64,000 nt of DNA from Arthrobacter sp. AQ5-05 (GTDB lineage Bacteria; Actinomycetota; Actinomycetes; Actinomycetales; Micrococcaceae), in contig NZ_QMKQ01000006.1 of the NCBI RefSeq assembly GCF_003287975.1, positions 62,001 to 126,000 on the forward strand, in the 5' to 3' direction. The position numbers and the translations under genes are program-made. The notes below the pieces were generated by a model. That model was not told where the DNA came from. It saw only the letters and a list, made by a program, of their open reading frames with translations, and searched no databases. Shown in pieces: positions 45,600 to 55,813 of the stretch; position 1 is the first letter of the stretch, and the number at the start of each line of letters is the position of its first letter.

Positions 45600-46766
45600 C
45601 TAGCTGCTGCGGAATTCCAGGTACGCCTCGATGCGCGCGGCAACCTGTGCGGCGCGCGCGGGGCTCCCCTCGCCCGACCCGCGCGCAGGTCCCGCCGCCG
45701 GCCCGGTTCCCTCCCCGGCGCCGAAGGGCACGAAGCGCCCCCGCCGCTGCTTGCCGGTGGCGGCCAGTTCCCAGGTGCCGACGGTTTGGCCTCCGGCGGC
45801 CACGGTGCGCAGGAAGATCCCGTTCTTCCCCGGGGTCACCGCCTGCACATGCTCCTGGGGCAGGGTCGCGGAGCGGTCCTTGTAGCCGAGCACGAACTCG
45901 TCGAACCCCGGAAGCGCCAGCACGCTGCGCGCCCCGGGCGGGTGCTCCCAGCGTTTTGCGTGTGCGGCGGCGAAATGGTGCGCGACCCCGCCCAGTTCGC
46001 GGCTGCCCAGCACCCCTGCCAGGTCCGCGACAGCGGCACGCACGGGCGTCAGCGGAATGCCGAGCCACCAGGCGCAATCGGCGACGGTGGCCGGGCCGTG
46101 GGACTCGAAGTAGGTGCGCACCAGCAATTTCAGCGCCCTGCGCGCGTCGGGCACCTCGGCCCCGGCCCGGATCCAGGACCCGGCGGCCATGAACAGCTGC
46201 CGGGTCTCGCTGCCGGGCTCCATGGGGCCCTGGACGATGCCCCCGTGCAGGCTCGCGGCCACGATCAGGTGGTAGCCGCGCTGCCCGGCGATGCTTGAGC
46301 CGGACGCGGCAAAGGCGTCAAGCAACTCCGTGCGCGTGGCACCCGCCCCGGCGCAGCGCTCGCGCGCCACCTCGGCCAGGCGCGCGATTTCCGGTGCGGT
46401 GATGTCTTCCTGCGCCCGGGTGGCGGCCATCTTCGCGTTCATCCGCGGTGCCGTCACGCTCATGAGCCTGCCGTGCAGCGCCGGGTCGATGAGCATCAAC
46501 GTGCCGCGGGCGCCCCAGCAACGGATGACCGAACCGTCCGTCAGGGCCGCATGGATGTCGCTGAGCCCGGCACCGGGCAGCCGCACGCCCACCGCCCAGC
46601 ACACCTGGGGCAGGTCCTGGGCCTGCATCATGCCCAGCGCGGCGACCACTTGCTGCGGCGTGGTGGCCGGCGCATCCAGGGTGGCCGGAGGAACACCCCG
46701 CAGCAGCCCCTGCGCGGCCAGGCGCAGGCGGGCGACGGCGGTGGTGCGTGGGGTTCCGGGTGCCAT
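45600..46766 (-). CDS. Winged-helix DNA-binding domain protein (HTH_42 family)
   Basis: 388 residues of the HTH_42 (COG3214) family, which includes DNA glycosylase-like proteins such as AlkX/YcaQ. Landmarks are VVAALGMMQAQDLPQVCWAV, RCWGARGTLMLIDPALHGRL and LPGFDEFVLGYKDRSATL with a C-terminal NGIFLRTVAAGGQTVGTWEL. The QxQ-type motif of the interstrand crosslink glycosylase YcaQ is seen as MQAQD. Activity is not established. ATG 46766 is preferred to one four codons upstream. It lies 18 bases after murB on the same strand. Confidence 0.85.
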   Translation of the reverse strand: MAPGTPRTTAVARLRLAAQGLLRGVPPATLDAPATTPQQVVAALGMMQAQDLPQVCWAVGVRLPGAGLSDIHAALTDGSVIRCWGARGTLMLIDPALHGRLMSVTAPRMNAKMAATRAQEDITAPEIARLAEVARERCAGAGATRTELLDAFAASGSSIAGQRGYHLIVAASLHGGIVQGPMEPGSETRQLFMAAGSWIRAGAEVPDARRALKLLVRTYFESHGPATVADCAWWLGIPLTPVRAAVADLAGVLGSRELGGVAHHFAAAHAKRWEHPPGARSVLALPGFDEFVLGYKDRSATLPQEHVQAVTPGKNGIFLRTVAAGGQTVGTWELAATGKQRRGRFVPFGAGEGTGPAAGPARGSGEGSPARAAQVAARIEAYLEFRSS

Positions 46767-46784
46767 GGTGCACCCCACGATTCC

Positions 46785-47861
46785 CTACAGGGCGCAGCCG
46801 ATCAAGAGCGGTTCGTTGTGCAGCTCGATGCCGAAGCGTTCGCGGACCCCGGCACGCACCGCGCGGGCGATGGCCAGCACGTCCGCGCTGGACGCGTGTC
46901 CGCGGTTGGTGATGGCCAGGGTGTGCTTCGTGGACAGCGCCGCCCGACCGCCGGCCAGCCGTTCCCCGGCGGTGCCTTCCAACCCGAAGCCCTTGGCGAA
47001 GCCGGCCCTGTCGATCAGCCAGGCAGCCGAGAGCTTGACCATGCCGGGGGTGTCCACCGGGAAGTTCGGGGCCCCGGCGGGCAGCGAGTCGAGCACCGCG
47101 GCCGGCACGATCGGGTTGGTGAAGAAGGAACCGGTGGAAAAGGTGTCGCGGTCCGCGGCGTCCAGCACCATGCCCTTGGAGGCACGCAATTGGAGCACCG
47201 TGGCGCGCACCGCCGCGGCGTCGGCGCGTTCTCCCACCGACACGCCCAGGGTGCGGGCCAGCTCCTGGTAGCGGATCGGCGCGGAGTCGGGCCGGCGCTC
47301 CAGCGCGAAGGACACCGAGAGCACCACGTATTGCGGCGAGCCGTTGGTGGTGGTGCGCTTGAGCAGCGAATCGCGGTAGCCGAACCCCAGCCCGGCGTTT
47401 CCGAAGTAGGTGGTGAAGCCGGTGGCGCGTTCGTAGACCTTGGCCTCGAGCAACGTGTGGGCCACCTCGGAGCCGTAGGCGCCGACGTTCTGCACCGGGG
47501 TGGCCCCGGCCGATCCGGGGATCCCGGACAGGGCCTCGAGCCCCGAGAGCCCGGCGTCCAGGGTCTGGGCGACGGCGTCGTCCCACGGGTGCCCGGCGGC
47601 GATGTCCACGCGGATGCGACCGTCGGACAGCTCCTTGCCGATCGACACCCCCCGGTTGGCGATCTGCAGCACCGTGCCGGGGTACCCGGCGTCGTCGATC
47701 ACCAGGTTCGAGCCGCCGGCAACGATCAGCAGTTCCTCCCCCGCCGCGTCCGCGGCCCCCACCGCGGCGGTGATCCGTGCCTCGGTGTCCGCACGGACGA
47801 AGGTGGCGGCGGGGCCGCCGACGCCGGTGGTGGTCAGGGGTGCGAGCAGCTGGGTGTTCAC
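46785..47861 (-). CDS. murB: UDP-N-acetylenolpyruvoylglucosamine reductase
   Basis: MurB is the FAD enzyme that reduces enolpyruvyl-UDP-GlcNAc to UDP-MurNAc for peptidoglycan. The 358 residues include the FAD-binding IVAGGSNLVIDDAGYPGTV, LSGIPGSAGATPVQNVGAYG, the proton-donating Ser in FSTGSFFTNPIV and the conserved terminal Glu in LHNEPLLIG. It uses GTG 47861 as start. It follows the MFS gene by 12 bases and is probably cotranscribed with it and with the dehydratase pair. Confidence 0.95.
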   Translation of the reverse strand: MNTQLLAPLTTTGVGGPAATFVRADTEARITAAVGAADAAGEELLIVAGGSNLVIDDAGYPGTVLQIANRGVSIGKELSDGRIRVDIAAGHPWDDAVAQTLDAGLSGLEALSGIPGSAGATPVQNVGAYGSEVAHTLLEAKVYERATGFTTYFGNAGLGFGYRDSLLKRTTTNGSPQYVVLSVSFALERRPDSAPIRYQELARTLGVSVGERADAAAVRATVLQLRASKGMVLDAADRDTFSTGSFFTNPIVPAAVLDSLPAGAPNFPVDTPGMVKLSAAWLIDRAGFAKGFGLEGTAGERLAGGRAALSTKHTLAITNRGHASSADVLAIARAVRAGVRERFGIELHNEPLLIGCAL

Positions 47862-47873
47862 GGTGGTTGCGCC

Positions 47874-49064
47874 TTAGTGTTCGGAGGTGTTGGTTGCGGG
47901 TTCCGGCACGGCGGCGGCCTTGCGGGGGCCGGCGGCCGGGGCCAGGAAGAAGGAGATGACCACGAGGATGCCCACGTAGCCCAGGGCGTGCAGCAGCCCG
48001 ACGCGGTCAGCCAGCAGGCCCAGCAGCGGGGGGCCGCCCAGGAACGCACCGTAGCCGATGGTGGAGACCACCGAGACCCGGGCGGCGGCGCGCATCGGGT
48101 CGTCCGAGGCCGCGGTCATCGCCACCGGGAAGCTCAGTGCGACCCCCAGTCCCCAAAACACCAGGGCCGCGAAGGCCGTGTGCAGGGAGGGCCCGAAGAC
48201 GAACAGCAGCAGTCCGGCCAGGGTGGACGCCGCGGAGATCCGGATGACCACCACGCGCCCGAGCCGGGCCAGGACAAACCCGCCGCCGAGGCGGGCCAGG
48301 GTCATCGCGGTGACGAAGACCCCGTAGCCGATGGCACCCACGGAGTTGATGGCCCCGTAGCCGTCGGACAGGGCCAGGGCGACCCAGTCCCCCGCCGCGC
48401 CCTCGGCCAGCGCCATGCCGAGGACCAGCACGCCGAGCACCAGGGTGCGCGGTTCGCGCCAGGCATCGGCCAGCAGCGACTTGTTGGAGTGCCCGGACCC
48501 GGCGTTGGAGGCGTCGGGCCGAAAGGCCCTGGTGCCGGTGTGGATGATGGCCAGCACGGCCACGGACATCAATGCGAAGTGCCAGGAAATGGACAGGTGC
48601 AGCGCGGCGCCCAGGGCCCCGGCCGCGGCACCCAGCACGGTGCCCACGGAGAAGAAGCCGTGCAGCACCGGCATGATCGGCACGCCCAGGGCCCGTTCCA
48701 TGGCGGCGCCCTGGACGTTGGAGGAGACGTTCCAGGCGGCGTTGCCGGCGCCCACGAGTCCCAGCGCCGTCCCGGTAAGCACCAGCGAGTGGAGCGCTGC
48801 CGCCGCGACGCCTACGGCAGCAAGTGCCACTGCGGTCAGCGAGGCGGCGAGCACCAGGGTCCGCTTGGAGCCCAGGCGCATGACCACGAATCCGGAGACC
48901 GAGACCGAGGCGAAGGACCCGGCCGTCATGCACAGCAGCAGCAGGCCGACCTCGCCGTGGCTCAGCCCCAGCGCGTCGCGCACCGAGGGCAGCCGGGAGA
49001 CCAGCGTGGAGAGCATCAGCCCGGAGGCCAGGTACAGCGCGAGCACGCCATTGCGCCAGGGCAT
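47874..49064 (-). CDS. MFS transporter
   Basis: A 396-residue major facilitator with about twelve membrane segments. It begins RNGVLALYLASGLMLSTLVS and has the loop 2-3 motif in VVMRLGSKRTLVLAASLT. GNAAWNVSSNVQGAAMERAL recalls the YbjJ-like subfamily. The substrate is unknown. The start ATG 49064 lacks a clear ribosome binding site. It lies between the HadB-like gene (59-base gap) and murB (12-base gap). Confidence 0.88.
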   Translation of the reverse strand: MPWRNGVLALYLASGLMLSTLVSRLPSVRDALGLSHGEVGLLLLCMTAGSFASVSVSGFVVMRLGSKRTLVLAASLTAVALAAVGVAAAALHSLVLTGTALGLVGAGNAAWNVSSNVQGAAMERALGVPIMPVLHGFFSVGTVLGAAAGALGAALHLSISWHFALMSVAVLAIIHTGTRAFRPDASNAGSGHSNKSLLADAWREPRTLVLGVLVLGMALAEGAAGDWVALALSDGYGAINSVGAIGYGVFVTAMTLARLGGGFVLARLGRVVVIRISAASTLAGLLLFVFGPSLHTAFAALVFWGLGVALSFPVAMTAASDDPMRAAARVSVVSTIGYGAFLGGPPLLGLLADRVGLLHALGYVGILVVISFFLAPAAGPRKAAAVPEPATNTSEH

Positions 49065-49123: not shown

Positions 49124-49564
49124 TCAGAGCTGCACCACGGCCTGGGCCTTGACCAGGACCTTGGTGCCCTCGACGCTGACCACCAGGTCCACGCGGGCGG
49201 TGCGGGCCTCGGTGTCCAGCGCGCCGATGGTGCCGACGATCTCGATGGCGGTGCCCCGGGTCTCGGACGGGTTGGTGCCGGCCGGGTCTGCCACCGGCAC
49301 GGGCTTGGTAAAGCGGGTCTGGTAGTCGACGATGGCGCCGGGGTTTCCGGCCCAGTCGGCGACCAGCTGCACCGCGGCCCCCATGGTGAACATGCCGTGG
49401 GCGATCACCCCGGGCAGCCCGACCTCGGTGGCGAAGCGCTCGTTCCAGTGGATGGGGTTGAAGTCCCCCGAGGCCCCGGCATAGCGCACCAGGTCCGCGC
49501 GGTTCACGAAGACGGTGGCGGAGCCGATCTGCTGGCCCTTTTCAAGGGCGTCGAAGTCGATCAT
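49124..49564 (-). CDS. MaoC-family dehydratase (HadB-like)
   Basis: 146-residue hot-dog-fold subunit. The hydratase motif is YAGASGDFNPIHWNERFATE with Asp34 and His39, five residues apart as in mycobacterial HadB, followed by GLPGVIAHGMFTMGAAVQLV. Together with the preceding HadA-like subunit it should dehydrate (3R)-hydroxyacyl thioesters in fatty-acid elongation. Its ATG overlaps the partner's stop by one base (TAATG). Confidence 0.9.
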   Translation of the reverse strand: MIDFDALEKGQQIGSATVFVNRADLVRYAGASGDFNPIHWNERFATEVGLPGVIAHGMFTMGAAVQLVADWAGNPGAIVDYQTRFTKPVPVADPAGTNPSETRGTAIEIVGTIGALDTEARTARVDLVVSVEGTKVLVKAQAVVQL

Positions 49565-50013
49565 TACTGGTCCTCTCCGCGTACCAAAATCGAGGAAACG
49601 GTGGTGGCGACCTTTTCGCCCTCGGTGGTGGCGATCTCGGCGCGGGTGGAAATCATGGCCCCGCCGCCCATGGCGCGCACGGTGTCCACGTGCAATTCGG
49701 CAACCAGCTGGTCCCCGGCCACGATGGGACGGTGGTGGGTGAAGCGCTGGTCGGCGTGCACCACGCGGGAGAAGTCGATGCCGCTGTCGGAATCGTTGAC
49801 CAGCAGCGCGTCGGCGCGCTGGGCCACGATGATCGCGAAGGTCGGCGGTGCCAGCAGGTCTCCGTGGCCCAGCTGCGCCGCGGCGTCCAGGTCGTAGTGG
49901 GCCCGGTGGGTGGCCTTCACGGCTGCGGCGAATTCGCGGATCTTTTCGCGGCCCACCACGTAGGGCTCCTGGGCCGGGTAGTTCCGGCCTGCCAAGTCGG
50001 GATTGATGCTCAT
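49564..50013 (-). CDS. FAS1-like dehydratase domain protein (HadA-like, UPF0336)
   Basis: 149-residue hot-dog protein beginning MSINPDLAGRNYPAQEPYVV and containing LLAPPTFAIIVAQRADALL and HADQRFTHHRPIVAGDQL. It lacks the catalytic Asp/His motif of its partner, as expected for a HadA-type subunit that provides substrate binding and stability in the heterodimer. It is translationally coupled to the HadB-like gene by a TAATG overlap. Confidence 0.88.
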   Translation of the reverse strand: MSINPDLAGRNYPAQEPYVVGREKIREFAAAVKATHRAHYDLDAAAQLGHGDLLAPPTFAIIVAQRADALLVNDSDSGIDFSRVVHADQRFTHHRPIVAGDQLVAELHVDTVRAMGGGAMISTRAEIATTEGEKVATTVSSILVRGEDQ

Positions 50014-50080: not shown

Positions 50081-50374
50081 CTAGGGGGTGTCCCCGGGGG
50101 TGTTGTTGTTGCGCTTGCCGCGCTTGGGCGGCCGGGGCCGGACCAGTCCCTGGGAGACGCGCCAGGCCCTGGCGTCGCGGGCGCGGATCACCATCCCGAT
50201 CAGGTGGGCCACCAGTCCGATGCCGATGATGCCCATGGCCGTGTACATCAGCGGCCGGTTGTGCGTGTTGGCACCGATCAGGGCCAGGACGATGCCAGTG
50301 CCCGAAACCACCATCGACCCGATGGCCAGTTTCTTGTACAGTCCGGAAGAAGCTTCCCAGGGGGTATTGGTCAT
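50081..50374 (-). CDS. Small membrane protein
   Basis: 97 residues with two membrane helices (KLAIGSMVVSGTGIVLALIG and LMYTAMGIIGIGLVAHLIGM) and a basic tail (RPRPPKRGKRNNN). It sits between the DUF2797 gene and the HadA-like gene on the same strand. No named family recognised. Confidence 0.75.
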   Translation of the reverse strand: MTNTPWEASSGLYKKLAIGSMVVSGTGIVLALIGANTHNRPLMYTAMGIIGIGLVAHLIGMVIRARDARAWRVSQGLVRPRPPKRGKRNNNTPGDTP

Positions 50375-50406: not shown

Positions 50407-51342
50407 TTAGAACAGTGCGCCCTGGACCGGTGGCGACTGTGTCGCATGTTCACCCAGCGCCAGTTTGCGCCCCTTCAACACAGCCGCATTGGCCACGAAC
50501 ATCTCCGGTTGCCCGCCCAATTCCATGCCCAGCACCTGCCCGGAGACCGCGGCCACGCAAAAACCGTGGGGTCCTTCGGCGAGGTTCCCCGGGTAGGGCT
50601 GCAGCCGGCGGGCGTCGAAACCGGCCAGCAGGACCTGTCCTTGGGGCGGCGGGGTCCAGGTCTCCTCGACCGTGTGCGAACCGGCCAGGGTTCCCGGGTC
50701 CAGCGACGCGAGAAGGCTGCGCGCGGCCTCCGCCCTGGAAGCGTTCAGCGCATCGAGTTCCACGGTGCCCACGTGGTTTTCCAGCAGGCCGCGGACCTTG
50801 GAGTTGGCCCTGACCTGTTGGGTGAATCCGAGCTCGCTGGTGAGAAGGTCCTCGAGGTCGCGCACCGAGACCCCGTCGGGGCACCAGGCGACATAGCGGG
50901 CGCTGATCGCGCCCTGTTCGGCCAGGCGGCGCCACTTGCTGGGGTTCGCGGCAGTGCCGACCTTGGTGGTTCCCTGGGCAAACGTCGCCACGTAGAGCCA
51001 GTGCGGTTGGTCCAGGTAGTCGCGCAGGCCCGGACCGGCGCGGCCCGTGCGATGGAATTCATGCATCGGCCGTGATTGGTCGGCGGCCGCGCAAGGTGCG
51101 CACTGGGTGCCGCTGGCAATCAGGGAGCCGGTCGGGCAGGGCACCAGGGTGCGGTGGGTCCTGTCGGCGATCAGTTGGTGGCCCAGGCACCAGCGGCCGG
51201 GCAGCACCCTGAAGCCAAGCCGCGTTTCCGGTTCCAGCACCACGTCGCGGGCGTGCCGGTTTTCATCATCGAGCACCAGCGACGGGGTTCCGGGGGCCGC
51301 GGGCCAGCGGATCCCGCGGCAGAGCAGGGCGCGGGTTTCCAC
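50407..51342 (-). CDS. DUF2797 domain protein
   Basis: 311 residues starting at GTG 51342 (VETRALLCRGIRWPAAPG), two bases past the stop of the MinD-like gene, so they are probably cotranscribed and coupled. It contains cysteine pairs near the N-terminus (CLGHQL, CPTGSLIASGTQCAPCAAAD) that look zinc-binding. Next comes the DUF2797 core: HWLYVATFAQGTTKVGTAAN, KWRRLAEQGAISARYVAWCP and VRDLEDLLTSELGFTQQVRA. The GxTKVG segment resembles GIY-YIG-like cores, which is inference. Function unknown. Confidence 0.85.
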   Translation of the reverse strand: METRALLCRGIRWPAAPGTPSLVLDDENRHARDVVLEPETRLGFRVLPGRWCLGHQLIADRTHRTLVPCPTGSLIASGTQCAPCAAADQSRPMHEFHRTGRAGPGLRDYLDQPHWLYVATFAQGTTKVGTAANPSKWRRLAEQGAISARYVAWCPDGVSVRDLEDLLTSELGFTQQVRANSKVRGLLENHVGTVELDALNASRAEAARSLLASLDPGTLAGSHTVEETWTPPPQGQVLLAGFDARRLQPYPGNLAEGPHGFCVAAVSGQVLGMELGGQPEMFVANAAVLKGRKLALGEHATQSPPVQGALF

Positions 51343-51343
51343 C

Positions 51344-53359
51344 TCAGCCGTGCAGTGCCCCGGCCACGGCGGCGGTGGCGTGCAGCCAGGCCCGGCGTGT
51401 TGCCGGGCGCAGTCCCTCAAAGCGGATCTGCCCCTTGACCAGTGCCGCGTCGTAGGGGACGGTGACCACGGAGCGGGCCAGGCGGCCGAAGCCGTGGGCG
51501 ATGCGGTCAAGCTGTTCGCTGTTGCCGTGGGGCTGGTGCTGGGAGACGATGACGACGGCGTTTTGGGCCAGCTCGGCGTAGTGTCCCCCGCGCTTGGCCA
51601 GGGCCTCGAGCAGCAGGGCGCCGGCCTCGGCGTGTTCCTCCACCGTGGTGCTGGCGATGACCAGCTGGTCGGTGTGGTCGATCATGCGCATCCAGCGTTC
51701 GGCCGACTCGTCGTTGCCCGAGTCCATGATGGTCAGGGAGAAGAAGCGCGAGGCTATCGAGTGCAACGCGTCGAAGTCCGCGGCGTTGACGAACTGCTCG
51801 CTGGCCAGCAGCGTCGGGTCGGTGCGCAGGACGCTGTAGCAGTCCTCGGGCTGGTAATGCGTGTAGTCGTGGATGACCGGGTCCCCGACCTTCACGTCCT
51901 TGAGCCGCGGTGCGGCAGCCAGCAGGTCCATGGAATGGGCGGTGTGCGGCCCCTGGCTGGTGCGCCAGCCCAGGGTTCCGCGGGTTCCGTTGTTGTCCCA
52001 GACCAGGACCGGGTCCCCGGTGTTGCGGCCGAAGACGGCCGAGAGCAGCACCGCGGTGGGGGTCTTGTTGGCTCCGCCCTTGCCGTTGACCACGGAGATG
52101 GTCTTGGGTTCGGTGAGCCGGGTGCCGACGACGCGGCGCCATTTGCGTTCCTCGACCTCCTCGGCCGAAGGTTCCATGTTGAAGCCCAGACGCGTGAGGA
52201 AGCCGCGGAAACCGCGTTCGGCACGGAACGTGGTCTCGTCCTCGGGGCGCAGGAACGTGTCGCGGGTCCCGGCTGCCGGGTTCATCTCGCGGAAGGCCTG
52301 GCGGCGCCCTTCGGGCGTCGTGAGGTCCTCGGCCGGTGCTGAGCTGTCCGCCGTCTTGGCCGCTGCCGCGGCGGGCGCGGCGGGGTTTCCGGCGGCCTTG
52401 GGTGCGACCGGCTTCGGAGCAACCGGCTTGGGCGCAGCAGGCTTGGCTGGGGCAGCAGCAGGCTTGTTGTCTGTCGTGGCCGTCGGCTTGGCGGGTGTTG
52501 CCGCGGGCTTCGCGCCCGGTGCGGCTGCCGGTTTGGCGGCCGCGGGAGCAGGCCTTGCGGCGGGGATGGCTGCCGTCGGAGCCGGCTTTGCCGCGGTAGG
52601 TGCGGGCTTTGCTGCGGCTGGAGCGGGTTTCGCTGCCGGTGTGGCGGCGGCCTGTGCAGGCTTTGGCTCCACGGGAGCCGGCTTGGTTGCGGGGGTGGCT
52701 GCAGGCTTGGCGGCTTCCGGCTTCGCGGCCGGGGCCGCGGGCTTGGCCGGTGCAGCGGGCTTGGCCGGTGCAGCGGCTGCGGCAGGTTTCGGGGAAGCAG
52801 TGGCTGCGGGCGCGGGTGGCTTGGCGGCGCTTACGGCGGGGGCCGCGGGCTTGGCCCCGGTTGCAGGCTGTGTCTCGGCCTTGGGCGGAACGGCCTTGGC
52901 ATCCGGTGCTTTTGCTGCTGCTGGCGCCGGTGCTGCTGGTTTGGCTGCGGGCTTGGCATTTGCCGGCGCCGGTGCAGCGGGCTTGTTCACGGTCTTGGTG
53001 GCGTTGCCGTCCTTTTCCGGGGCTGGCGCGGCGGCTGCGGGCCTTGCCGGAGCCGACGGAGCCGGTTTGGGTTGCGGCTTTGCGGGGGCCGTTGCGCTCG
53101 ACGCGGCCGTCGGTGCGGTCTTGGCGTTTGCGGCGCCTGCGGTGTTGACCGGGCTGGCTGGTCCGGGCTTGGCGGTTGCGGCCGGGGCTCCTTCGAGGCC
53201 GGCTTCGGGAACGGCATCGAATTCGTCCGGCACCCGGGGCTTTGCCGCGGCCTTCTTCGCGTCGTCCTTGGCCTGTTCTTGGGCTGCCACTTCGGCTTGG
53301 CGGGCGCGCCGCAGGGAAGCACGGGTCGGGAACTCTTGGTTGAAGTCCGCTTTCGGCAT
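51344..53359 (-). CDS. MinD/ParA-like ATPase with long Ala/Pro/Lys-rich N-terminus
   Basis: 671 residues from ATG 53359 (ribosome binding site AGGAGAGGA). The charged start MPKADFNQEFPTRASLRRAR is followed from about residue 60 to 345 by a low-complexity region dominated by Ala, Pro and Lys (units such as AAKPAPAAAKPAPT). A P-loop ATPase domain then starts near residue 415. Its Walker A motif is altered: VVNGKGGANKTPTAVLLSA, where KGGVGKTT is usual. Later parts include LTIMDSGNDESAERWMRMID and VVIVSQHQPHGNSEQLDRIA. The architecture recalls EspI of mycobacterial type VII secretion, but no secretion genes are nearby. It is followed at once by the DUF2797 gene. Confidence 0.85.
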   Translation of the reverse strand: MPKADFNQEFPTRASLRRARQAEVAAQEQAKDDAKKAAAKPRVPDEFDAVPEAGLEGAPAATAKPGPASPVNTAGAANAKTAPTAASSATAPAKPQPKPAPSAPARPAAAAPAPEKDGNATKTVNKPAAPAPANAKPAAKPAAPAPAAAKAPDAKAVPPKAETQPATGAKPAAPAVSAAKPPAPAATASPKPAAAAAPAKPAAPAKPAAPAAKPEAAKPAATPATKPAPVEPKPAQAAATPAAKPAPAAAKPAPTAAKPAPTAAIPAARPAPAAAKPAAAPGAKPAATPAKPTATTDNKPAAAPAKPAAPKPVAPKPVAPKAAGNPAAPAAAAAKTADSSAPAEDLTTPEGRRQAFREMNPAAGTRDTFLRPEDETTFRAERGFRGFLTRLGFNMEPSAEEVEERKWRRVVGTRLTEPKTISVVNGKGGANKTPTAVLLSAVFGRNTGDPVLVWDNNGTRGTLGWRTSQGPHTAHSMDLLAAAPRLKDVKVGDPVIHDYTHYQPEDCYSVLRTDPTLLASEQFVNAADFDALHSIASRFFSLTIMDSGNDESAERWMRMIDHTDQLVIASTTVEEHAEAGALLLEALAKRGGHYAELAQNAVVIVSQHQPHGNSEQLDRIAHGFGRLARSVVTVPYDAALVKGQIRFEGLRPATRRAWLHATAAVAGALHG

Positions 53360-54317: not shown

Positions 54318-54320
54318 TCG

Positions 54321-54392
54321 AGCCCCCCACCGGAATCGATCCGGTGACCTCGTTCTTACCAAGAACGCGCTCTACCACTGAGCTAGGGGGGC
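54321..54392 (-). tRNA. tRNA-Thr (GGT)
   Basis: On the minus strand GCCCCCCTAGCTCAGTGGTA begins a 72-base cloverleaf. The acceptor stem GCCCCCC pairs with GGGGGGC, the anticodon loop is TTGGTAA (anticodon GGT), and the T-stem is CACCGG/CCGGTG. No CCA tail is encoded. A second, nearly identical copy lies at 55742-55813. Confidence 0.93.
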
Positions 54393-55586: not shown

Positions 55587-55596
55587 AAGTCCTTGG

Positions 55597-55670
55597 TAGC
55601 GGCTCCGGGACTCGATCCCGGGACCTCACGATTATGAGTCGTGCGCTCTAACCAGCTGAGCTAAGCCGCC
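55597..55670 (-). tRNA. tRNA-Met (CAT), elongator type
   Basis: On the minus strand GGCGGCTTAGCTCAGCTGGT begins a 74-base cloverleaf. The anticodon loop is CTCATAA with anticodon CAT, and the acceptor GGCGGCT pairs with AGCCGCT (first pair G-U). The first acceptor pair is paired and the anticodon stem lacks the three G-C pairs of an initiator, so it is called elongator. Confidence 0.9.
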
Positions 55671-55741
55671 ACGAATGATGAGACCCGCGTCCGCGCCAGG
55701 TTCCCTTGCGGGCCGACTTGGACGCGGGCCATTCCATTCAG

Positions 55742-55813
55742 AGCCCCCCATCGGAATCGATCCGATGACCTCGTTCTTACCAAGAACGCGCTCTACCACT
55801 GAGCTAGGGGGGC
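55742..55813 (-). tRNA. tRNA-Thr (GGT), second copy
   Basis: Identical to the copy at 54321-54392 except for one compensated pair in the T-stem (CATCGG/CCGATG instead of CACCGG/CCGGTG). The anticodon loop TTGGTAA is unchanged. It is upstream of tRNA-Met on the same strand, and the two may be cotranscribed. Confidence 0.93.

What the first reader, a model, noticed from the sequence alone, without database searches (positions are those of the whole stretch)
50407..53359. MinD-like ATPase with altered P-loop and a 280-residue Ala/Pro/Lys tether, coupled to DUF2797
The ATPase has Walker A KGGANKTPT instead of KGGVGKTT: the catalytic-loop Gly is replaced by Asn and the second Thr by Pro, while the deviant Lys and the P-loop Lys remain. 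A long low-complexity arm precedes it, as in EspI-type proteins, but no type VII secretion or partition gene is near. Two bases later starts a DUF2797 gene with zinc-type cysteines. The tight pairing suggests a joint, undescribed function. ATP binding with weak hydrolysis is an inference from the motif.
Basis: partly seen in the sequence, partly recalled or inferred. Interest (0 to 1): 0.7.

Follow-up and report, generated by a model that had tools for sequence, protein, structure and literature searches.

The report
Chromosomal cousin of conjugation ParA-like ATPase
A soil bacterium's chromosome carries a well-conserved relative of a positioning ATPase often found in plasmid DNA-transfer gene clusters; its unusual ATP-binding loop is common in that family, and the gene beside it is mostly a neighbour, not a fixed companion.

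Summary
In detail: KGGANKTPT P-loop, an Ala/Pro/Lys arm of about 300 residues, and a DUF2797-like gene one base downstream. The P-loop is close to a family signature: KGGA[N/G/S]KTP[T/S] recurs in actinobacterial MinD/ParA-like ATPases, many of them in conjugative type IV secretion (T4SS) clusters, one in this genome. The window copy belongs to one chromosomal clade of Micrococcaceae (44 tree rows, support 100/99) at a deaD...hadA-hadB-murB site. The pair is in 15 of 15 genomes of the genus. Outside it the genes are usually separated by other genes, or one is missing, and DUF2797 changes 3.3-6.2 times faster. The Lys-rich arm is specific to the genus. New here: the residue matching MinD's hydrolysis Asp D40 is Asn in 103 of 104 rows (23 of 24 not found by a motif), and a cationic amphipathic helix precedes the domain. 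Most likely a membrane-associated, ATP-switched scaffold with slow hydrolysis, kin to conjugation ATPases, without an obligate DUF2797 partner; this function is inferred. New variant of a known kind; moderate interest.

The parts
51344..53359 (-). MinD/ParA-like ATPase gene, 671 aa
   Evidence: orthologues
53273..53359 (-). Conserved basic N-terminal head, residues 1-29 (FPTRASLRR)
   Evidence: first 53 residues 53-96% identical in 14 of 14 other genus loci; a (P/T)TRxxxRR-type motif found by pattern in 28 of 43 chromosomal-site orthologues
52325..53227 (-). Ala/Pro/Lys low-complexity arm, residues 45-345, net positive
   Evidence: Lys-rich only in this genus among the loci compared
52184..52225 (-). 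Cationic amphipathic stretch before the ATPase domain, residues 379-392 (RAERGFRGFLTRLG)
52055..52081 (-). Deviant Walker A KGGANKTPT
51989..51997 (-). DNN (residues 455-457), in place of MinD DxD; N457 falls on the hydrolysis Asp D40 by ungapped alignment
51707..51724 (-). Walker B/switch II DSGNDE (residues 546-551)
50407..51342 (-). DUF2797-like gene, 311 aa, Cys 52/69/81/84 invariant in 30 sequences
50830..51009 (-). Residues 112-171 of the DUF2797-like protein: beta-beta-alpha-beta-alpha with Y117, K127, G129, R139, E164 invariant; GIY-YIG-like by eye, not proven
50081..50374 (-). Small hydrophobic protein, 97 aa, no Pfam family; next to hadA in the loci where both were found
49564..50013 (-). 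hadA-like dehydratase (FAS1_DH_region), locus anchor
49124..49564 (-). hadB-like MaoC dehydratase, locus anchor
47874..49064 (-). MFS transporter
46785..47861 (-). murB, locus anchor

Best explanation
The gene encodes a MinD/ParA-superfamily ATPase of an actinobacterial family, many of whose members sit in conjugative T4SS clusters next to a cell-wall hydrolase. The window copy is a chromosomal version kept at the deaD...hadA-hadB-murB site of Micrococcaceae. Proposed working: ATP drives a sandwich dimer through the signature Lys and P-loop Lys; dimerisation raises the avidity of the cationic amphipathic helix in front of the domain for the membrane; the N-terminal head and arm reach a partner or the nucleoid. 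The switch-I Asp is Asn, so the ATP dimer should be long-lived, making it more a placed scaffold or clamp than a fast oscillator. DUF2797 is a closely linked neighbour in this genus, not an obligate partner. Shown by computation: family, predicted fold, synteny, clade, residue conservation. Inferred: dimer, membrane binding, slow hydrolysis, role in placing a membrane or wall machine.
For: Fold: ParA/Soj/MinD/FleN chains top the PDB search (E to 8.9e-10). Signature Lys, P-loop Lys, T33 and Walker B Asp are conserved in 44/44 chromosomal-site rows. Asn at the D40 position in 103/104 rows, 23 of the 24 rows not found by a motif seed; ungapped alignment to Pyrococcus MinD 1g3q and ParA 3cwq. MinD D40A was mainly dimeric with negligible ATPase (PMC13246001, passages). 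Stretch 379-392 has a hydrophobic moment up to 0.72, against 0.27-0.38 for the E. coli MinD tail. 274 of 72,556 plasmid records match; 9 of 11 viewed have an annotated SCO6880-family, VirB4 or PrgI gene nearby and a tenth has homologues of such a cluster. One chromosomal clade, 44 rows, 100/99. ATPase domain has the lowest dN of seven locus genes in 9 of 14 comparisons.
Against: No experiment. The helix is modelled at pLDDT about 56-70 and could pack on a partner instead of a membrane; helices inside the ATPase domain of the same protein have higher moments, up to 0.91. MAFFT places MinD D40 one column earlier, on N56, which is Asn in 44/44 chromosomal rows but in only 17 of 21 unseeded T4SS rows. 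No T4SS gene is at the locus, so a role carried over from conjugation rests on kinship. 28 of the 60 tree rows outside the site have no T4SS match in the fetched flank, and standalone copies in Leifsonia, Microbacterium and Occultella sit in unrelated contexts, giving no shared partner.
Confidence: 0.5

Rival explanations
1. Joint system: the ATPase places or gates the DUF2797-like protein, which acts on DNA as a zinc-bearing GIY-YIG-like nuclease or DNA-binding protein.
For: One-base gap in the window, and about 0-24 nt in the 9 other genus loci, so probably one transcript. Both genes share the locus in several other genera. The DUF2797 model is confident (pLDDT 93.2); viral fold hits include GIY-YIG, CapR, T5 Orf172 and Seg-like names, none at E<=0.001. 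In some Arthrobacter loci an ATP-dependent DNA ligase lies between them.
Against: None of the 5 g35 genomes (Zhihengliuella/Kocuria polaris) nor the one g9 genome gave a DUF2797 match at E<=1e-15, yet all six keep the ATPase at the site. Three genera seen in full have DUF2797 at the site without the ATPase. dN of DUF2797 is 3.3-6.2 times that of the ATPase domain in 14 comparisons. Profile comparison with MUG113 gave only 1-2% probability (unrelated control 0.1%).
Confidence: 0.12
2. Retained conjugation helper: the chromosomal ATPase acts on resident or incoming conjugative elements, as a stand-in for, or brake on, their own copy.
For: The own genome carries a second family member inside a T4SS cluster (G000:C33); many relatives are T4SS-linked. 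ParA-like StbB stimulates R388 transfer, is strictly required when StbA is present, and is needed for polar placement of the plasmid (PMC3098194, passages).
Against: The chromosomal copy is kept in genus genomes in which this search found no second family member (G003, G004, G005, G007, G010, G013, G014), and is under strong purifying selection.
Confidence: 0.13
3. Pseudo-ATPase: with Asn in both the P-loop and switch I it binds nucleotide constitutively or not at all and is a static scaffold.
For: Asn at P-loop position 5 and at the D40 position in 44/44 chromosomal-site rows.
Against: Signature Lys, P-loop Lys, Thr and Walker B Asp are all invariant in that clade, which argues for a nucleotide-dependent role.
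Confidence: 0.15

Closest known systems
MinD (E. coli, B. subtilis)
   Same: Deviant Walker A fold; cationic amphipathic helix with a GFLxRL-like core (E. coli tail KKGFLKRLFGG read; window GFRGFLTRLG)
   Different: Helix is before, not after, the domain; no minC/minE among the genes checked; P-loop Gly and D40 positions are Asn; long arm
ParA/Soj partition ATPases
   Same: Fold and signature Lys; best Foldseek match is a ParA family ATPase
   Different: No parB among the eight neighbours scanned; the genome has seven AAA_31 matches elsewhere, one of them the second family copy; Asn for the catalytic Asp
VirC1 / StbB, ParA-like proteins of conjugation (PMC3098194, passages)
   Same: ParA-like proteins tied to conjugation; the T4SS-linked kin fit such a role by position
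   Different: Those are Gram-negative and tied to the transferred DNA; here the kin sit beside a cell-wall hydrolase, and the window copy is chromosomal without a T4SS
EspI of type VII secretion (recalled)
   Same: Low-complexity N-terminal arm and ParA-like domain (recalled)
   Different: No type VII gene among the neighbours scanned; EccC model matches in the genome are below its curated cut-off and on other contigs
PF10977 DUF2797
   Same: Cys residues, K.G...RL.EQGA core; hhalign E 1.7e-9
   Different: Below Pfam's gathering cut-off

Membership tests
ParA/MinD deviant Walker A superfamily | KGGxxK[ST] P-loop | tested here: met
ParA/MinD deviant Walker A superfamily | ParA/MinD fold | tested here: met
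   predicted model pLDDT 86.7; 3ea0 E 8.9e-10, TMt 0.77
Hydrolysing MinD/ParA (functional subclass) | Switch-I Asp (MinD D40) | tested here: not met
   Asn in 103 of 104 rows by the ungapped assignment (23 of 24 unseeded); the exact column differs by one between aligners
MinD proper | C-terminal membrane-targeting helix and minC/minE neighbours | tested here: not met
   a similar helix is N-terminal to the domain; no min gene among the eight neighbours scanned
ParABS partition ATPase | adjacent parB and centromere | tested here: not met
   no parB among the eight neighbours scanned; parS sites not searched
EspI / type VII secretion | type VII genes at the locus | tested here: not met
   eight neighbours scanned; EccC model below cut-off and on other contigs
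T4SS-linked ATPase family described here | sequence clade with KGGA[N/G/S]KTP[T/S] | tested here: met
   a few members differ, for example KGGVGKTMT
T4SS-linked ATPase family described here | located in a T4SS cluster | tested here: not met
   the window and the 14 other genus loci have no match at E<=1e-6 to the T4SS query proteins
DUF2797 (PF10977) | Pfam gathering score 25 bits | tested here: not met
   20.4 bits
DUF2797 (PF10977) | profile-profile homology to members above the cut-off | tested here: met
   probability 96.3, E 1.7e-9 against three members; so a divergent relative
GIY-YIG nuclease | GIY-YIG core fold and catalytic Arg and Glu | tested here: inconclusive
   topology and invariant Y117, K127, R139, E164 fit; no significant fold match; hhalign 1-2%
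ParA/MinD deviant Walker A superfamily | ATP binding, dimerisation, hydrolysis | not testable with these tools
   needs biochemistry

The most novel reading that the evidence does not exclude
A family of actinobacterial MinD/ParA-like ATPases has fixed Asn at the hydrolysis Asp, and often at the P-loop Gly, and so works as long-lived ATP-bound membrane clamps for conjugation machines. One copy became a chromosomal housekeeping gene in Micrococcaceae, and in Paeniglutamicibacter it gained a Lys-rich, histone-tail-like arm that ties the membrane clamp to the nucleoid.
Probability: 0.12. Interest if true: 0.7.

Novelty: new variant of a known kind. Interest (0 to 1): 0.4.

Why it matters
It points to a ParA/MinD-like ATPase as a recurrent part of actinobacterial conjugation clusters, by position next to the wall hydrolase, and to a chromosomal relative kept under strong selection. 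If the switch-I Asn means slow hydrolysis, the family would test whether MinD-type positioning can work without fast ATP cycling. It also corrects two misleading cues: a P-loop change that is widespread in the family, and an operon-like pairing that does not hold across genera.

Tried and rejected
EspI-type protein: rejected for lack of type VII genes among the neighbours scanned and because many closer kin are T4SS-linked. Chromosome partition ATPase: rejected for lack of a neighbouring parB, and stronger ParA matches exist elsewhere in the genome. Defence system: no PADLOC match for either protein at E<=0.1. Tether as the defining feature: rejected, Lys-rich only in this genus among 43 loci. 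My early reading of the ATPase at this site as limited to one genus was changed by the family survey. GIY-YIG identity of DUF2797: kept only as a lead. One search was an out-of-frame translation and was not used. A genome-wide count of the N-terminal head motif was planned and not done.

Papers: two papers in the library mention DUF2797; I saw the one passage in each. Searches for the ATPase family listed no title or abstract start that describes it; I opened only PMC3098194, PMC9178275, PMC12102498, PMC3218068 and PMC13246001, as passages. Listings were seen as listings only, apart from PMC13246001 and PMC9178275.
Full report
What is there. The ATPase gene spans 53359-51344 (minus strand) and a DUF2797-like gene 51342-50407, with one base between stop and start. 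The ATPase has a basic head, an arm of about 300 residues (41% Ala, 24% Pro, 11% Lys), a short amphipathic stretch and a C-terminal ATPase domain with KGGANKTPT. The two genes head a co-directional run through a 97-aa hydrophobic protein, two MaoC-type dehydratases (hadA, hadB), an MFS transporter and murB, with gaps of -1 to 67 nt. Pfam sees the ATPase only weakly (AAA_31 17.2 bits, cut-off 27) and DUF2797 weakly (20.4 bits, cut-off 25).

Distribution in the genus. The window is G000:C6:62001-126000. Both genes occur in 15 of 15 genomes of the genus searched, own included, and in the 14 other loci fetched the order ATPase, DUF2797, small protein, hadA, hadB, MFS, murB is the same. The nine close relatives among named records are six Paeniglutamicibacter species, two Arthrobacter-labelled genomes and one metagenome assembly, so I call the genus Paeniglutamicibacter; this is by sequence kinship.

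Distribution beyond. Among 197 family genomes of 32 genera, the ATPase domain was found at E<=1e-30 in 79 and DUF2797 at E<=1e-15 in 99. Fetched loci show the ATPase at the same chromosomal site in Zafaria, Arthrobacter, Zhihengliuella and Haematomicrobium. In the five g35 genomes and the one g9 genome the ATPase is there and no DUF2797 match was reported. In three genera of the first survey (g5, g8, g10) DUF2797 stands at the site without an ATPase. For other genera with DUF2797 I did not fetch the locus; in g32 and g40 no ATPase match was listed, and in the g37 and g38 genomes with both, they lie on different contigs or far apart. Of 43 chromosomal-site loci, 33 have DUF2797 within the fetched flank. 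Of these, 12 have a gap of at most 150 nt (9 of the genus, Zafaria, two Arthrobacter); the other 21 have about 674 to 5089 nt, counted to an estimated DUF2797 start. I looked into nine of those 21: a DJ-1/PfpI gene, an ATP-dependent DNA ligase gene or both lie in eight, and in the ninth no gene was called; three of these genes were named by Pfam, the others by likeness to them. Loci found by whole-genome search show the same two kinds of gene between the pair. So close linkage depends on the lineage.

Rates. Against the window, over 14 genomes of the genus, DUF2797 has dN 3.3-6.2 times that of the ATPase domain; DUF2797 is the fastest of seven locus genes in 13 of 14 and the ATPase domain the slowest in 9 of 14. 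The ATPase is a real, constrained gene, and the two do not evolve at one pace.

Kin in conjugation clusters. tblastn of the protein hits 274 of 72,556 plasmid records at E<=1e-5. I viewed 11, chosen from the top 40. Nine carry a gene annotated as SCO6880 family, VirB4 or PrgI nearby; a tenth has homologues of the same cluster; the eleventh shows only a wall hydrolase by my query set; all 11 have a wall-hydrolase gene by annotation or by tblastn. That SCO6880 marks conjugation clusters is recalled; one viewed plasmid has it beside TraM-type and MobF relaxase genes. The own genome holds a second member in such a cluster (G000:C33, L075). Three of the 11 plasmids carry a separate ParA family gene in view, so this ATPase is unlikely to be their partition ATPase.

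Tree. With 104 ATPase domains (44 labelled chromosomal site, 32 T4SS-linked, 28 other), the site group is one side of a branch with 100/99 support; T4SS and other copies are mixed, 8 changes each. Of the 43 site loci, 42 show deaD or had/murB genes in the flank and one short contig shows only DUF2797. Two of the 32 T4SS rows (L021, L086) were so labelled on a wall hydrolase alone. The T4SS label rests on my query proteins within the fetched flank, so some 'other' rows may be T4SS-linked. The root is a midpoint.

Seeding bias. Eighty of the 104 rows come, the best 80 of 414 relatives, and had to match VNGKGGAN or a stretch with WDNN; they cannot be used to count those residues. Of the 24 rows not so seeded, the P-loop residue is Asn in 9, Gly in 10 and Ser in 2 of 21 T4SS rows, and the D40-equivalent is Asn in 23 of 24. 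For the chromosomal site itself, unseeded evidence is the 15 genus loci (KGGANKTPT in 15 of 15) and six loci of other genera, all with KGGANKTPT and WDNN.

Active site. Signature Lys, P-loop Lys, the following Thr and Walker B Asp are invariant in the 44 chromosomal rows. The switch-I DxD of MinD/ParA is DNN here. HMMER aligns it without gaps to Pyrococcus MinD (1g3q) and a ParA family structure (3cwq), which puts N457 on the hydrolysis Asp. MAFFT shifts E. coli MinD by one column, to N456, also Asn in all 44 chromosomal rows but in only 17 of 21 unseeded T4SS rows. Two distant paralogues with a canonical P-loop also read D-A-N-P there, so the change may be older than this family. In B. subtilis MinD, D40A was mainly dimeric and had negligible ATPase activity (PMC13246001, passages). 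The P-loop Gly by itself is not decisive, because SopA reads KGGVYKT (PMC9178275, passages).

Membrane helix and arm. Residues 379-392 form a cationic amphipathic stretch; for 80 relatives the best window of a short segment there has a median moment of 0.62, a median rank in the top 3% of windows of the frame, and net charge at least +1 in 71 of 80. Taking the best window favours high values, and helices inside the domain score higher still, up to 0.91. The model gives the stretch low confidence, as expected for a linear motif but no proof. The Lys-rich arm is confined to the genus: Lys 10-13% and net positive in 9 of 9 genus loci plus the window, against 0-3% Lys in the other 34 chromosomal loci. 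Those figures use stop-to-stop frames where no start motif was found, so some include upstream bases.

DUF2797-like protein. The AlphaFold model is confident (pLDDT 93.2). Homology to PF10977 members is supported. The stretch 112-171 has the strand-strand-helix-strand-helix order of GIY-YIG domains (recalled), with Y117, K127, R139 and E164 invariant in 30 sequences. The tests were not decisive: no PDB match at E<=0.001; viral models with GIY-YIG, CapR, T5 Orf172 and Seg-like names among the top 50, none at E<=0.001; hhalign to MUG113 1-2%, with 0.1% for the unrelated ATPase profile.

Conclusion. I read the ATPase as a positioning or scaffold ATPase that cycles slowly, one branch of a family often tied to actinobacterial conjugation, and the DUF2797 pairing as a lineage-dependent neighbourhood. 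The family, site and residue statements rest on calculations; mechanism and partner are inference.

Noticed in passing
window 54320-54392, 55594-55670, 55741-55813 (minus): Two tRNA-Thr(GGT) genes and a tRNA-Met within 1.5 kb, with a DedA/VTT-domain gene between; looks like a local tRNA duplication.
   Followed up: no
window 45600-46778 (minus): AlkZ-like DNA glycosylase gene six bases after murB; with the DNA ligase seen between ATPase and DUF2797 in some Arthrobacter this puts DNA-repair genes around the locus.
   Followed up: partly
L075 (G000:C33:27619-28374): Second member of the ATPase family in the same genome, inside a T4SS cluster with a separate ParA-like gene.
   Followed up: partly
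L206, L209, L211: In Microbacterium, standalone chromosomal copies of the ATPase lie among what look like purine-biosynthesis genes (names by eye from the sequences).
   Followed up: no
L193, L195, L196, L190: Three Occultella species keep a standalone copy in a shared context, and one of them also has a T4SS-linked copy.
   Followed up: no
L091, L022: The N-terminal part of two T4SS-linked ATPases resembles an FHA-annotated protein (32-36% identity), pointing to a shared N-terminal domain.
   Followed up: no
window 50081-50374 (minus): 97-aa hydrophobic protein without a Pfam family, kept beside hadA with or without the ATPase.
   Followed up: partly
G000:C11:29135-31021 and G000:C1:105612-106256: EccC-like matches below the type VII cut-off in the own genome (349.6 and 191.3 bits, cut-off 509); the C1 one lies about 17 kb from a ParA-like gene.
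   Followed up: no
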